From positions 1 to 27,902 of the forward strand of contig CAKSJP010000023.1 of assembly GCA_934463425.1 (NCBI GenBank): 27,902 nucleotides of DNA, in the 5' to 3' direction. The notes beneath the pieces were generated by a model, which was given only the letters and a program-made list of their open reading frames with translations, searched no databases and was not told the origin of the DNA. Origin of the DNA: an uncultured Ruminococcus sp. (GTDB taxonomy: Bacteria; Bacillota; Clostridia; Oscillospirales; Ruminococcaceae). The position numbers were made by a program, and so were the translations under genes. Positions 1 through 27,801 of this stretch are shown here, piece by piece (the stretch's first letter is position 1; each line of letters opens with the position of its first letter).

Positions 1-504
1 CTTTGTCACTTCGTGACATTTCCCCACACTGTGGGGAATCACCCTTTTCAAGGGGGACGAGAGACTCCTCCGCCCTGTCGGGCACCTCCTCTAGGAGAGG
101 AGGCTTGGGGGGACGGTGTTCGCCCCTACGGTGGGCGGTGAGTTACCGGTTTTGTTGGGCGGGGCGATGTGGGCATCGCCCCCTACGATCCCTCCGTCTG
201 CTCCTCACGGAGCAGCCACCTCCCTTTTCAAGGGAGGCATAAAGACTCCTCCGCCCTAACGGGCACCTCCTCTAGAAGAGAAGGCTCGGGGGGACGGTGT
301 TCGCCCCTACGGTGGGTGGTTGCCGGTTGGGGATGGATATTACCGTTTTGTTTTGGGCGGGGCGATGTGGGCGGCGAGCCATACGAATCCCCCTGTCACC
401 TGCGGTGACATCCCCCTTTTCAAGGGGGACGAGAGACTCCTCCGCCCTGTCGGGCACCTCCTCTAAAAGAGGAGGCTCGGGCGAACAATGTTCGCCCCTA
501 CATT
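1..504. repeat. Mosaic of short palindromic repeat modules (no gene)
   Basis: No credible gene lies here; the open frames are low-complexity translations of repeats. The stretch is a patchwork of small inverted repeats: TGTCAC/GTGACA at 4-18, TTCCCCAC/GTGGGGAA at 20-38, CCCCCTT-TTC-AAGGGGG-type and CCTCCTCT-AGG-AGAGGAGG-type hairpins, and REP-like hairpins followed by CTAC at 107-125 (degenerate), 161-182, 288-306 (degenerate) and 479-497. The block is partly tandem: the order of modules in 20-186 recurs in 225-420. The same modules recur at 4.8, 5.5, 7.2, 10.5 and 22.6 kb. Confidence 0.85.
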
Positions 505-735
505 GCGTACCGGGAAACAGGGATTCCCCGGAGGGGGGAACAGGCGGCTGCTGCCGCCGTAAGGGAAATTATTTCTCTCCGTTGGATTGGGGGGTAAGGC
601 TCAGCGGCGGCTCGCTATCCTTGGGCGAGTCTGCCGTCGCCATTTCCGCTGGGCGACGGGCTGGCTGCCGCCGCCGTAAGACTGCCCTTTTCTCTCCGTT
701 GGATTGGGGGTAAGGCTCACAGCGAGCACGCTGCC
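505..735 (+). repeat. Family-B repeat module, internally duplicated copy
   Basis: It begins with GCGTACC, continues through a TTCCCC-GGAG-GGGGAA hairpin, a GGCGGC-TGCT-GCCGCC hairpin, a run around TCTCTCCGTTGGATTGGGG and TAAGGCTCA, and ends in a CAGCG-AGCA-CGCTG hairpin (720-733). The central part occurs twice in this copy. Related copies lie at 2982, 4604, 5009, 16487, 23003, 24684 and 24954. It ends about 30 bp before the pfk promoter. Confidence 0.8.
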
Positions 736-767
736 TGTCACAGATTCTGCAAACTTCCGGTAAAATA

Positions 768-796
768 TTGACAATGACGCTGAAATGGGGTACAAT
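768..796 (+). promoter_or_regulatory. Sigma-A promoter of the phosphofructokinase gene
   Basis: Perfect -35 TTGACA (768-773), 17-bp spacer, near-perfect -10 TACAAT (791-796). The start codon is at 868 and a strong ribosome-binding site AAAGGAG is at 854-860, giving a leader of about 65 nt. Confidence 0.85.
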
Positions 797-867
797 AAAA
801 AGGAAGGACTTTTTCAGATGTTTTCTGGAAAGATTTTAATTGTGTCAAGGAACAAAGGAGATCTCAT

Positions 868-25107: not shown

Positions 25108-25128
25108 ATAAAATTTGAGGTGATACCT

Positions 25129-27012
25129 ATGGAATATTATCATATGGGAACTTATGATGTCGCCGTGGTCGGCGCAGGCCATGCCGGCGTAGAGGCTGCT
25201 CTTGCCGCCGCACGCCTGGGCTGCCGCACGGTGCTGTTTACAATTTCTCTCGACCAGATCGCCAATATGCCCTGCAATCCGTCCATCGGCGGTACGGCAA
25301 AAGGACATCTCGTCCGGGAGATCGACGCCCTCGGCGGCGAAATGGGAAAGGCGGCAGATGTCTGCTTTCTCCAGAGCCGCATGCTGAATCGGGGCAAGGG
25401 CCCGGCAGTCCACAGCCTTCGGGTGCAGGCAGACCGGGTGCAGTATCATAACTACATGAAACAGGTCTGTGAAAAGACACCGCTCCTGGAGATCAAACAG
25501 GCGGAGATCGCCGAGATCCAGACCGAAAGCGGCAGAGTTACCGGCGTGGTCACTTCCCTTGGCGCACAGTATACCGTCTCCGCCGCAGTGATCGCCACCG
25601 GAACGTATCTCAACGGCAGGATCCATGTGGGACAGGTCTCCTATGAGAGCGGCCCGGATGCGGCATTGCCCAGCCGTCCTCTGGGAAAAAATCTCCAGGA
25701 ACTGGGACTGCGGATGCGCCGCTTTAAAACCGGAACGCCCTGCCGTGTCCACCGCCGGAGCATCGACTTCGACGCTATGGAGCGCCAGGACGGCGACGAC
25801 CATATCGTGCCGTTTTCCTTTGGCTCTGACCCGTCCCGGATGCACAACCAGGTGTCCTGCTACATCACCTATACCAACGAAGAGACTCACCGGATCATCC
25901 GGGAAAATCTCCACCGTTCCCCTTTGTTTTCGGGACAGATCGAGGGTGTCGGCCCGCGGTATTGTCCGTCCATTGAGACAAAGATCGTCCGCTTTTCCGA
26001 CAAACCCCGGCATCAGCTTTTCGTAGAGCCTATGGGCATGCAGACAGAGGAATACTATTTGCAGGGCATGTCCTCTTCCCTGCCGGAGGATGTCCAGCTG
26101 GCATTTCTCCGCACCATCCGGGGCCTGGAGCATGTGGAGATCATGCGCCCGGCGTATGCCATCGAGTACGACTGCGTAGACCCCACAGAGCTTCGGGCAT
26201 CCCTGGAGAGCAAGAAGATCGCCGGGCTGTTCGGGGCAGGCCAGTTCAACGGCAGCTCCGGCTATGAAGAAGCCGCCGCGCAAGGTCTGGTGGCAGGCAT
26301 TAACGCGGCACTGGCAGTGCAGGGAAAGCCGGCATTTGTCATGGATCGGGCACAGTCCTATATTGGCACACTGGTGGACGATCTGGTGACAAAGGGCTGT
26401 GAAGATCCCTACCGCATGATGACCTCCCGGAGCGAATACCGCCTGATCCTGCGCCAGGACAACGCCGATCAGCGGCTGATGCCTCTGGGACATGCGCTGG
26501 GGCTGGTGTCCGAGGAGCGCTATCAGCACATGCTGGAAAAATACCAGTTGGTGGCGCAGGAAAAAAAGCGGGTGGAAAAAACAAATATTGCGCCCTCGCC
26601 GGAGATCAACGCCTTTTTGGAATCCCACGGTACAGCGCCTTTGGCTACCGGATGCAAGGCGGCAGATCTGATCCGCCGTCCGCAGCTGGACTATGGCAGT
26701 ATCGCGCCCTTTGATGAGACCCGTCCGGCACTGGATCCGGTCATCGGAGAGCAGGTGGAGATTCAGATCAAATATGACGGCTATATTCAAAAGCAAATGG
26801 CACAGATCGACCGCATGCGGAAGCTGGAAAACCGCAGTCTGCCGGAGGATCTGGACTATACCACCGTGCGCGGACTGCGCCTGGAGGCAGCGGAGAAGCT
26901 GAATGCGCACCGTCCCCAGAATCTGGGACAGGCGAGCCGAATCTCCGGGGTTTCTCCGGCGGATATTTCCGTGCTGATGGTGTGGGATGCCGCAAAGGAG
27001 GAACAGGCATGA
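25129..27012 (+). CDS. mnmG: tRNA uridine-5-carboxymethylaminomethyl modification enzyme MnmG
   Basis: 627 residues; FAD-dependent partner of MnmE in wobble-uridine modification. The dinucleotide-binding motif is VVGAGHAGVEAALAAARLG (13-31), followed by PCNPSIGGTAKGHLVREIDA (48-67) and RGLRLEAAEKLNAHRP with ASRISGVSPADISVL at the C-terminus. ATG 25129 is chosen over GTG 25120, which overlaps the ribosome-binding site GAGGTG (25117-25122). It overlaps rsmG by 4 bp (ATGA). A family-B repeat makes up its immediate upstream region; it follows mnmE after 580 bp of repeat-laden DNA instead of the usual short gap. Confidence 0.97.
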   Translation: MEYYHMGTYDVAVVGAGHAGVEAALAAARLGCRTVLFTISLDQIANMPCNPSIGGTAKGHLVREIDALGGEMGKAADVCFLQSRMLNRGKGPAVHSLRVQADRVQYHNYMKQVCEKTPLLEIKQAEIAEIQTESGRVTGVVTSLGAQYTVSAAVIATGTYLNGRIHVGQVSYESGPDAALPSRPLGKNLQELGLRMRRFKTGTPCRVHRRSIDFDAMERQDGDDHIVPFSFGSDPSRMHNQVSCYITYTNEETHRIIRENLHRSPLFSGQIEGVGPRYCPSIETKIVRFSDKPRHQLFVEPMGMQTEEYYLQGMSSSLPEDVQLAFLRTIRGLEHVEIMRPAYAIEYDCVDPTELRASLESKKIAGLFGAGQFNGSSGYEEAAAQGLVAGINAALAVQGKPAFVMDRAQSYIGTLVDDLVTKGCEDPYRMMTSRSEYRLILRQDNADQRLMPLGHALGLVSEERYQHMLEKYQLVAQEKKRVEKTNIAPSPEINAFLESHGTAPLATGCKAADLIRRPQLDYGSIAPFDETRPALDPVIGEQVEIQIKYDGYIQKQMAQIDRMRKLENRSLPEDLDYTTVRGLRLEAAEKLNAHRPQNLGQASRISGVSPADISVLMVWDAAKEEQA

Positions 27013-27719
27013 TGACATATGAAGCGGCAAAAACACTGTTTGCCGGCGCGGAACTGCCGCTGGCGGAGAGCCACTTTGCACAGCTGCAATGCTACTGGAA
27101 GGAACTGGTCGAAGTCAACCAGCACATGAATCTCACCGCCATTACAGAGCCGGCGGAGGTGTGGGAAAAGCATTTTCTGGACAGCGCCATATTGCTGAAG
27201 CTGGTGCAGCTGCCCCTGGGCGCGTCCTGCATCGATGTGGGCACCGGGGCAGGCTTTCCCGGCATGGTACTGGCGATTTTGCGGCCGGATCTACAGGTGA
27301 CGCTGTTGGACAGTCTGCAAAAGCGCGTCGGCTTTTTGGAGCAGACGGCGAAAAAGCTGGGGCTTGCCAACGTGCGCTGCATCCACGCCAGAGCAGAGGA
27401 GGGCGCACAGCAGCCGGAACTGCGGGAGCAGTTTGACATGGCGACTGCCAGAGCCGTGGCGGCGATGCCGGTGCTGACGGAGTATTGTCTGCCCTTTGTC
27501 AAGGCGGGCGGCATATTTGCAGCCATGAAAGGTCCGTCAGAGACCGCAGCGCAGGCAGAGCAGGCGGCAAAGCAGCTGGGCGGAGAGATTGCCGGAGAGG
27601 TGCAGTACGCCCTGCCGACTGCCGGCGCACGGCGCATGATCCAGATCCGGAAGGTGGAAGCTACGCCCAAAAAATATCCGCGCCGGAGCGACAAGATCAA
27701 GAAGCAGCCGTTGGTGTGA
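27009..27719 (+). CDS. rsmG: 16S rRNA (guanine-N7)-methyltransferase RsmG (GidB)
   Basis: 236 residues. It methylates G527 (E. coli numbering) of 16S rRNA using S-adenosylmethionine; loss of function gives low-level streptomycin resistance in other bacteria. NLTAIT (41-46), the SAM-binding loop CIDVGTGAGFPGMVLAI (74-90), ARAVA and the C-terminal IRKVEATPKKYPRRSDKIKK are typical. ATG 27009 overlaps the mnmG stop; AAGGAGG at 26995-27001 lies inside the mnmG end. The adjacent ATG 27012 is an alternative. In relatives parA/parB often follow; the window ends before that can be checked. Confidence 0.96.
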   Translation: MMTYEAAKTLFAGAELPLAESHFAQLQCYWKELVEVNQHMNLTAITEPAEVWEKHFLDSAILLKLVQLPLGASCIDVGTGAGFPGMVLAILRPDLQVTLLDSLQKRVGFLEQTAKKLGLANVRCIHARAEEGAQQPELREQFDMATARAVAAMPVLTEYCLPFVKAGGIFAAMKGPSETAAQAEQAAKQLGGEIAGEVQYALPTAGARRMIQIRKVEATPKKYPRRSDKIKKQPLV

Positions 27720-27778
27720 GCAGATAAGATAAAAGCAATTGCGCAAATCACGCGCCGTGGCTTCCGGAAAGAGACATC

Positions 27779-27801
27779 GTAGGGGCGAACATGGTTCGCC
27801 C
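27779..27801 (+). repeat. REP-like hairpin, GTAG orientation
   Basis: GTAG (27779-27782) followed by GGGCGAACATGGTTCGCCC (27783-27801), then the linker seen next to family-C right ends. Confidence 0.78.

What the first reader, a model, noticed from the sequence alone, without database searches (positions are those of the whole stretch)
107..27801. REP-like hairpin family with GTAG foot and covarying stems
About 26 hairpins lie in gaps between genes. Read with GTAG on the 5' side, one type is GTAG-GGGCGAAC-AT(T/G/C)-GTTCGCCC and the other GTAG-GGG(N)CGATG-CC(C/T)A-CATCG(N)CCC. Foot and loop are constant while the stem changes in pairs: G-C (161, 22770, 24628), T-A (4911, 5178, 5698). A GTAG tetranucleotide 5' of a hairpin is the known hallmark of REP sequences recognised by RAYT (TnpA_REP) Y1 transposases in gamma-proteobacteria. 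It is inferred that this Clostridia genome has a comparable system; no RAYT gene is in the window.
Basis: partly seen in the sequence, partly recalled or inferred. Interest (0 to 1): 0.75.

Follow-up and report, generated by a model that had tools for sequence, protein, structure and literature searches.

The report
REP repeats mirrored inside transposase genes
The short GTAG-footed hairpins scattered between genes in this gut-type Clostridia contig are REP repeats, and in related bacteria the transposase gene expected to move such repeats usually carries a matching inverted pair of the same hairpin inside its own protein-coding sequence.

Summary
Under a strict rule the window has 20 GTAG-footed hairpins (0.03 expected), none in coding DNA, plus 6 degenerate or altered-foot copies, in two stem types, A and B. 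It is the origin region of a spore-forming Clostridia-type bacterium whose genome is not held. The REP/RAYT reading is supported by relatives. Of 295 genomes of one order, 25 have the A stem, and 22 of those 25 have a REP-associated tyrosine transposase (RAYT), against 67 of 295 overall. The nearest relative found has no RAYT hit and no A/B hairpin in 235 kb sampled.

These clostridial RAYT genes usually carry their own REP pair inside the reading frame: a sense hairpin near codon 40 and an inverted one about 16 codons after the HUH motif (63 of 90 genes; about 0 expected after synonymous shuffling). The two stems match within a gene, differ between genes, track the protein tree, and match REPs elsewhere in the same genome more than chance. 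Window stem A is the one translated as VGANxVRP/GRTxFAPT. In-frame REPs in one RAYT subclass were reported in 2018, as insertions. The fixed, paired, cognate arrangement in Clostridia appears new. The window's own RAYT remains unseen.

The parts
161..186 (-). type B REP hairpin, stem GGGGCGATG, loop CCCA
107..129 (-). type A REP, 3' arm degenerate; HT partner of 161-186
288..310 (-). type A REP, 3' arm degenerate
359..384 (-). type B REP, degenerate, foot GTAT; HT partner of 288-310
479..501 (-). type A REP hairpin, loop ATT
3402..3424 (-). type A REP hairpin, loop ATT
3456..3481 (-). type B REP, two mismatched pairs; HT partner of 3402-3424
4857..4879 (-). type A REP hairpin, loop ATT
4911..4936 (-). 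type B REP hairpin (T-A pair), HT partner of 4857-4879
5124..5146 (-). type A REP hairpin, loop ACT
5178..5203 (-). type B REP hairpin (T-A pair), HT partner of 5124-5146
5644..5666 (-). type A REP hairpin, loop ATT
5698..5723 (-). type B REP hairpin (T-A pair), HT partner of 5644-5666
7253..7275 (-). type A REP hairpin with foot GTAA
7306..7331 (-). type B REP hairpin, one mismatch (T/C), HT partner of 7253-7275
7426..7448 (-). type A REP hairpin, loop ATC
7493..7518 (-). type B REP hairpin, one mismatch (T/C), HT partner of 7426-7448
10516..10538 (+). type A REP hairpin, loop ATG, in the gap upstream of gyrA
16950..16972 (-). type A REP hairpin, loop ATC, in the dnaA-dnaN gap
22609..22631 (+). 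type A REP hairpin, loop ATG
22711..22736 (+). type B variant, stem GGACAGATG, loop CCTA; head-to-head with 22770-22795
22770..22795 (-). type B REP hairpin, second half of a head-to-head pair (85 bp)
22947..22969 (-). type A REP hairpin, loop ATC
24628..24653 (-). type B REP hairpin with foot GTAA
24900..24922 (-). type A REP hairpin, loop ATT
27779..27801 (+). type A REP hairpin, loop ATG

Best explanation
The hairpins are REP sequences: short non-autonomous single-strand DNA elements moved by a Y1 HUH transposase of the RAYT (TnpAREP) kind that recognises the GTAG foot and the stem. Shown: the hairpins exist as described; their stems recur in related genomes that mostly have a RAYT; RAYT genes of this order usually carry, inside the reading frame, an inverted pair of hairpins at two fixed loop positions; that pair is self-matching, differs between lineages, tracks the protein tree and matches REPs elsewhere in the same genome above chance. 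Inferred: a RAYT of the VGAN-x-VRP / GRT-x-FAPT type (for A) and perhaps a second one (for B) are or were in the window's genome; they bind folded REP DNA exposed as single strand, cut next to GTAG-footed hairpins and join ends, scattering REPs into gaps between genes; and the in-gene pair keeps the transposase gene coupled to a matching substrate.
For: 20 strict hairpins against 0.03 expected, 0 of 20 in genes. A stem in 25 of 295 genomes of the order, 22 of these 25 with a RAYT, against 67 of 295 overall, Fisher 4e-13; B stem in 14 of 295, 8 of 14 with a RAYT, p 0.0045 (relatedness of genomes not corrected for). Nearest relative by RecF, G344 (69%): no RAYT by profile A1 or PF01797, and in 235 kb sampled only two A+T-rich chance GTAG hairpins. 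RAYT identity: NF047646 matched by 10 of 10, 4er8 best in PDB by sequence, fold matches to IS608, ISDra2 and 4er8, Gln-Arg-Tyr-Asn pattern in 88 of 90 genes. In-gene pair: 63 of 90 genes (61, before a motif-search fix), synonymous-shuffle mean 0.00. The two stems are identical in 41 of 63 pairs, against a shuffled mean of 2.0 and maximum of 9. Stem geometry needs 14 changes on a tree built without the hairpin residues, against 29.6 shuffled, minimum 23. Hairpins more than 1 kb from a RAYT match an in-gene stem of their own genome in 28 of 118 cases, against a permuted mean of 4.5 and maximum of 16. In-gene first hairpins: 7 of 9 and 5 of 8 pairs with two-sided changes.
Against: No RAYT is seen for the window's own species. 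20 of 90 RAYT genes have no strict in-gene hairpin; by eye about 8 of these 20 keep a translated trace at the first site. 90 of 118 distant hairpins do not match an in-gene stem of their own genome, but only 5-73 kb per genome was sampled and some RAYTs may be lost or unseen. In G268 the commonest distant stem (GGGCGGAT, 6 of 16) matches none of its RAYT hairpins seen. G284 has 12 A hairpins, yet its one RAYT seen has a different stem (L158). Three of 25 A genomes and 6 of 14 B genomes have no RAYT hit. No transposition or empty site was shown. The covariation counts use hairpins chosen by a pairing rule, and their number of further pair types does not exceed shuffles (359 and 199 of 500 as high).
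Confidence: 0.82

Rival explanations
1. The in-gene hairpins are passive: REPs now and then land in exposed loops of any protein, RAYT included, and are tolerated in frame. This is how the 2018 survey presents them.
For: Both hairpin-encoded peptides lie in loops of the model, the first in the only stretch with pLDDT under 50 (42-49), the second between the HUH strand and the next helix. REPs inside unrelated genes are reported (PMC3733652, passages).
Against: Same two sites and same head-to-head orientation in 63 of 90 genes; of all 135 in-gene hairpins only 1 is in the wrong half for its orientation. Density 2.93 per kb inside RAYT genes, 0.67 in their 500-nt flanks, and 16 in about 860 kb away from RAYTs in G268. 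Of 52 genomes with an in-gene hairpin, 26 show no other GTAG hairpin in the stretch sampled.
Confidence: 0.3
2. The B-spacer-A composite is a miniature IS200/IS605 element: B is the left-end and A the right-end hairpin, both in the same orientation, moved by an ordinary TnpA.
For: Eight B-then-A composites on one strand with 56-74 nt foot to foot; IS200/IS605 ends are two hairpins with 5' tetranucleotide guides (PMC6006769, passages).
Against: A and B stems each occur as an inverted pair inside RAYTs. The genome with most PF01797 hits (G002, 10 hits, 5 of them spanning positions 2-121) has no A hairpin. Spacers differ between composites, and A and B also occur alone.
Confidence: 0.07
3. They are RNA hairpins: terminators or mRNA-stabilising elements kept for gene expression, and the match to RAYT genes is incidental.
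For: All 20 lie outside genes and stems are G+C-rich.
Against: A near-constant DNA tetranucleotide foot, both orientations in the window, absence of A and B from the nearest relative's sampled DNA, and lineage-specific stems shared with the transposase gene. Rfam at gathering threshold finds only two tRNAs in the window.
Confidence: 0.04
4. The copies arose by plain segmental duplication of larger intergenic repeats that happen to contain hairpins.
For: Several copies share flanks: composite families D1 and D5 and others.
Against: A hairpins are joined to several different right flanks and to different left flanks, and the same stems occur in other genomes.
Confidence: 0.06

Closest known systems
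GTAG-tagged REP superfamily (Di Nocera et al. 2013, PMC3733652; abstract, section 16 and passages seen)
   Same: GTAG foot, perfect or near-perfect stem, intergenic, singles and dimers in head-to-head and head-to-tail order, several types per genome, link to tyrosine transposases
   Different: 'Clostridi' and 'Firmicutes' do not occur in its main text; there the REPs flank the RAYT gene or overlap its ends, here the cognate pair is inside it
TnpAREP subclass 2.4 = RAYT group 4 (Quentin et al. 2018, PMC6006769; abstract, passages and section 13 seen, supplement not seen)
   Same: REPs in frame inside tnpAREP genes, described as unique to this subclass and predominant in it; residues W94, Q95, R104 said to be conserved; double-foot REPs, explained there as a possible central deletion between an inverted dimer
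   Different: Text puts the insertions generally between HuH and Y (my second site); the first site before HuH, the fixed cognate inverted pair and the Clostridia are not described in what I saw. HuH-Y distance there median 88, here 66
E. coli TnpAREP (4er8) and its REPtron
   Same: HUH and Tyr residues, recognition residues, GTAG-footed hairpin substrate (PMC8266576, abstract and sections 28 and 29 seen)
   Different: Its REPs carry a bulge (abstract) and flank the gene; no in-gene pair (recalled)
IS200/IS605 TnpA elements (IS608, ISDra2)
   Same: Fold, hairpin ends with 5' guide tetranucleotides
   Different: Hairpins bound the element outside the gene; around the ten strong IS200-type matches here no GTAG hairpin was found in the 2-3.4 kb held
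Rickettsia palindromic elements inside genes (recalled; mentioned in PMC3733652)
   Same: Palindromic repeats kept in frame in proteins
   Different: Spread over unrelated genes and, as I recall, not tied to a transposase gene

Membership tests
GTAG REP sequences | GTAG immediately 5' of a short palindrome | tested here: met
   20 strict copies; GTAG the top foot of 256
GTAG REP sequences | multi-copy and extragenic | tested here: met
   0 of 20 in coding DNA
GTAG REP sequences | cognate RAYT in the same genome | not testable with these tools
   own genome not held; in relatives, A stem 22 of 25 and B stem 8 of 14 genomes with RAYT
GTAG REP sequences | mobility: empty sites or cutting by the cognate enzyme | not tested
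   no close strain held; biochemistry needed
RAYT / TnpAREP (the relatives' genes) | HUH motif, catalytic Tyr, downstream Asn | tested here: met
   HUH in 89 of 90; Gln-Arg-Tyr-Asn pattern in 88 of 90, with Trp before the Gln in 69
RAYT / TnpAREP (the relatives' genes) | closer to RAYT than to IS200 TnpA models | tested here: met
   NF047646 matched by 10 of 10, best E 2.1e-23; IS200 model by 9 of 10, best E 9.5e-9; the one member printed has 71.3 against 17.8 bits, under the curated cut-off of 80
TnpAREP subclass 2.4 / RAYT group 4 | REPs in frame inside the gene | tested here: met
   63 of 90 with the pair, 7 more with one hairpin
TnpAREP subclass 2.4 / RAYT group 4 | long HuH-Y distance (median 88 aa in the paper) | tested here: inconclusive
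   median 66 aa, range 57-90, 87 of 90 genes measured, my way of measuring may differ
TnpAREP subclass 2.4 / RAYT group 4 | membership by the authors' profile or tree | not testable with these tools
   profiles not held; supplements not available
IS200/IS605 miniature element | left and right hairpins bounding one element with fixed cut sites | tested here: inconclusive
   eight B-A direct composites exist but spacers vary and A and B occur apart

The most novel reading that the evidence does not exclude
In this clade the transposase gene is its own REPIN: the inverted pair of cognate hairpins brackets the catalytic HUH-coding segment, is kept by selection at the DNA level inside the protein frame, and serves as the master substrate from which the genome's REPs are matched or renewed. 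Acting on its own gene, the enzyme can delete its own catalytic core, as in one remnant where the central segment is replaced in frame by a single double-foot hairpin, giving a built-in brake on spread.
Probability: 0.3. Interest if true: 0.82.

Novelty: new variant of a known kind. Interest (0 to 1): 0.58.

Why it matters
How REPs spread and how RAYTs stay matched to them is an open question. A transposase gene that usually encodes its own recognition hairpin twice, at fixed protein positions, lets one read the cognate REP straight from the protein sequence (VGANxVRP with GRTxFAPT means the window's A stem). That makes enzyme-substrate coevolution testable across many gut species, predicts which RAYT the window's genome should hold, and offers a ready assay: recode the in-gene hairpins without changing the protein. 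It also brings GTAG REPs into the Clostridia, where I found no description in the papers searched.

Tried and rejected
Own-genome searches failed because no genome is held. A first test of cognate stems outside RAYT genes (T3) was wrong: genes in the larger loci were not masked, so in-gene hairpins were counted as outside ones; the corrected test is and only it is used. The count of 61 in-gene pairs missed two genes through a bad motif match; one search gives 63, and one search corrects the wrong-half count from 3 to 1. My note proposed a replication-strand bias (16 of 20 window copies on the presumed lagging-strand template) and gave 245 kb for G344; the sum is 235 kb, and I give the strand bias no weight because the origin was assumed, not shown, and composites are not independent. 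Breakpoints of partial RAYTs seemed to cluster at the hairpins, but profile hits end at variable loops anyway; at DNA level (11 loci examined) only one, L300, shows a clean central deletion. A search for the window's composite in four relatives found nothing (no positive control). Paper searches: led to the 2018 survey; two searches listed RAYT papers of which I saw passages of one (PMC8049555) and parts of another (PMC8266576); others (0 papers; 231 and 661 papers, 8 listed each, none on REPs) gave nothing relevant; led to PMC12306157, of which I saw two passages; PMC2817692 and PMC3686654 were only searched for words. Bertels 2017 is not held and is known to me through PMC6006769. From 124 RAYT-like frames, 34 duplicates or partial ones were dropped before the counts on 90 (63 genomes); these come from the better hits plus genes, so they lean towards intact genes.
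Full report
Setting. The window holds dnaA, dnaN, recF, gyrB, gyrA, jag, mnmE, mnmG and three spoVA-type genes, so it is the origin region of a spore former. No genome is held for it. The closest genome found by RecF, among those searched, is G344 (69%; DnaA 82%, GyrB 89%), then G001 (56%) and G446 (56%).

Observation. A strict scan gives 20 GTAG hairpins (12 A, 8 B) against 0.03 expected, none in coding DNA, and GTAG beats every other foot. Six more copies are degenerate or have an altered foot. 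There are two types: A, stem GGGCGAAC with a 3-nt loop, and B, stem GGGNCGATG with a 4-nt loop. Eight times B and A stand in the same orientation 56-74 nt apart; one B pair (22711-22795) is head to head. A copies are joined to several different flanks, although some share larger duplicated composites.

Covariation. In the window it is real but thin: 3 of 9 pairs of B with two-sided changes, 4 cells, in 6 distinct sequences. Across species it is strong. For first hairpins inside transposase genes, 7 of 9 pairs (25 distinct sequences) and 5 of 8 pairs (16 distinct) change on both sides, with covariation scores of 0.62 and 0.60 against 0.16 and 0.14 shuffled. The number of further pair types does not exceed shuffles (359 and 199 of 500 as high), and the hairpins were chosen by a pairing rule, so these scores are illustration more than proof; the synonymous-shuffle null below is the independent test. 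In the 9-pair class one pair is unpaired in 14 of 25 distinct sequences, 9 of them as G-A.

Link to RAYTs. A search of 16 related genomes for PF01797 found two kinds of gene: ten strong IS200-type matches without GTAG hairpins in the 2-3.4 kb held, and twelve weak matches, 9 of which have GTAG hairpins in or around them; four more fragments belong to neither list. The weak ones are RAYTs: the ten aligned all match the NCBI REP-associated tyrosine transposase model (best E 2.1e-23; the IS200 model is matched by 9 of 10, best E 9.5e-9; the one member printed scores 71.3 bits, under the cut-off of 80), the best solved structure by sequence is TnpAREP 4er8, and the predicted fold matches IS608, ISDra2 and 4er8. 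In 295 genomes of the order of G001, 67 have such a RAYT. A stems occur in 25, of which 22 have a RAYT (Fisher 4e-13); B stems in 14, of which 8 do (p 0.0045); kinship among genomes is not corrected for. G344 has no RAYT and, in 235 kb, only two A+T-rich GTAG hairpins.

The pair inside the gene. In 90 unique full-length RAYT genes from 63 genomes, 63 have a sense GTAG hairpin before the HUH motif and an inverted one after it, 3 have only the first, 4 only the second, 20 neither. In one search, before a small fix, the figure was 61 of 90, against a mean of 0.00 when synonymous codons are shuffled within each gene, 100 shuffles each (0.25 for the first, 0.41 for the second hairpin). Of 135 in-gene hairpins one is in the wrong half for its orientation. 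The first foot falls in the same codon phase in 61 of 64 cases, at a median of codon 40; the unit is 158-293 nt, median 194; the second starts a median of 16 codons after the HUH methionine. In the structure model the first hairpin's residues are the only stretch with pLDDT under 50 (42-49) and the second's lie between the HUH strand and the next helix.

Cognacy. Within a gene the two stems are identical in 41 of 63 pairs, against 2.0 on average when partners are shuffled (maximum 9 in 5,000 shuffles); there are 40 distinct first stems. On a tree built without the hairpin residues, stem geometry needs 14 changes against 29.6 shuffled (minimum 23) and exact stem 18 against 29.4 (minimum 24). 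Hairpins more than 1 kb from any RAYT share an in-gene stem of their own genome in 28 of 118 cases (13 of 26 genomes), against 4.5 permuted (maximum 16). In G268, 860 kb sampled, 28 G+C-rich GTAG hairpins were found: 9 inside or within 50 nt of five RAYT loci, 3 within 1 kb, 16 elsewhere, none in the first 400 kb. Of those 16, 8 share a stem with a resident RAYT's hairpins (GGGCGATT 5, GGGCAGAC, GGACGGCC, GGGCGATC); GGGCGGAT (6) and GGGCGAAC (2) do not. Of 52 genomes with an in-gene hairpin, 26 show no other GTAG hairpin in the 5-73 kb sampled. So the pair is kept where other copies are few.

Window stems decoded. The A stem read in the RAYT frame gives VGANxVRP before HUH and GRTxFAPT after it. 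A search with the A-type RAYT L107 gave 1,750 relatives; of the 120 listed, 54 have both A-type peptides and 32 have the next coupled pair (VGASxAR with RAxLAPT). Two of the 120, P0025 and P0063, have VGANIVR with RTMFAPT, exactly what the window's commonest A copy (loop ATT, 5 of 12) would encode. B-type pairs occur in L100, L121 and the partial gene L110, and in variant form in L211 and L220. I predict RAYTs of these types in the window's genome; that is inference.

One remnant. In L300 (G157) the RAYT segment between the two hairpin sites is missing and a single hairpin with a foot on both sides stands in its place, with both halves in one frame. This is what the 2018 survey said a central deletion in an inverted dimer would leave. 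It is one case out of 11 loci with partial genes examined; slippage between inverted repeats could do the same as the enzyme.

Outside the order. Among seven plasmid or phage-collection relatives, the Monoglobus (Clostridia) gene has the second hairpin inside and the first upstream of the annotated start; a phage-labelled faecal scaffold has both inside. The Leptolinea gene has only flanking REPs, the Spirosoma gene a double-foot hairpin after its stop, and the other three none in the gene. The paired arrangement is thus not general to RAYT relatives, on this small sample.

What is known. In-frame REPs inside tnpAREP genes were reported for subclass 2.4 as insertions, generally between HuH and Y, and judged to have perhaps little effect (PMC6006769, section 13). 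GTAG REPs in many phyla, and REPs inside unrelated genes, were described in PMC3733652. TnpAREP and REPs co-evolve, by an in vitro study of other groups (PMC8266576, abstract). What I did not find, in those passages and in my searches, is the fixed cognate pair at two sites or the clostridial REPs; the 2018 supplement was not available, so the first point may be partly visible there.

Judgement. REP identity is close to certain; RAYT mobilisation is very likely by homology and association but not shown; a selected role for the in-gene pair is the interesting open part.

Noticed in passing
window 1-600, 2970-5800, 7200-7600, 16480-17070, 22600-25120: The gaps are a mosaic of further repeats besides A and B: CCTCCTC...GAGGAGG hairpins, CCCCCTTGAAAAGGGGG, GTCACC..GGTGAC palindromes, and elements of about 160-250 nt (95% identical at 3128 and 5237; 93% at 4604 and 16488).
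   Followed up: partly
window 15847-17104: The dnaA-dnaN gap is about 1.26 kb and holds several dispersed repeats plus one A hairpin; in G344 the same gap is about 0.54 kb.
   Followed up: partly
window, 5' side of A copies: 12 of 15 A copies have ACC just before the foot, mostly CACC, so the A foot may be longer than four bases.
   Followed up: no
L300 (G157:C44), about 696-1002 on the - strand: RAYT remnant with the segment between the two hairpin sites replaced in frame by one double-foot hairpin.
   Followed up: partly
L308 (G138:C53): A 379-nt partial tandem duplication of a RAYT gene with both in-gene hairpins copied (388 to 767, 579 to 958).
   Followed up: no
in-gene 9-pair stems, alignment A4 columns 11 and 20: The seventh pair is unpaired in 14 of 25 distinct sequences, often as G-A, which may be a recognised irregularity like the bulge of E. 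coli REPs.
   Followed up: no
L313 (NZ_OY725736.1, Monoglobus pectinilyticus): RAYT between two site-specific DNA methyltransferase genes on a 518-kb replicon labelled plasmid; the annotated start lies after the first hairpin.
   Followed up: no
L316 (MT839559.1): A faecal scaffold deposited as 'Bacteriophage sp.' carries a clostridial-type RAYT with both in-gene hairpins; it may be bacterial DNA.
   Followed up: no
window 15843-16520, 20247-21395: Two ORFs without any NCBIfam match; the second lies beside jag and has 33-41% relatives beside jag in G446 and G001.
   Followed up: no
window 2261-2412: Two tRNA genes on the - strand.
   Followed up: no
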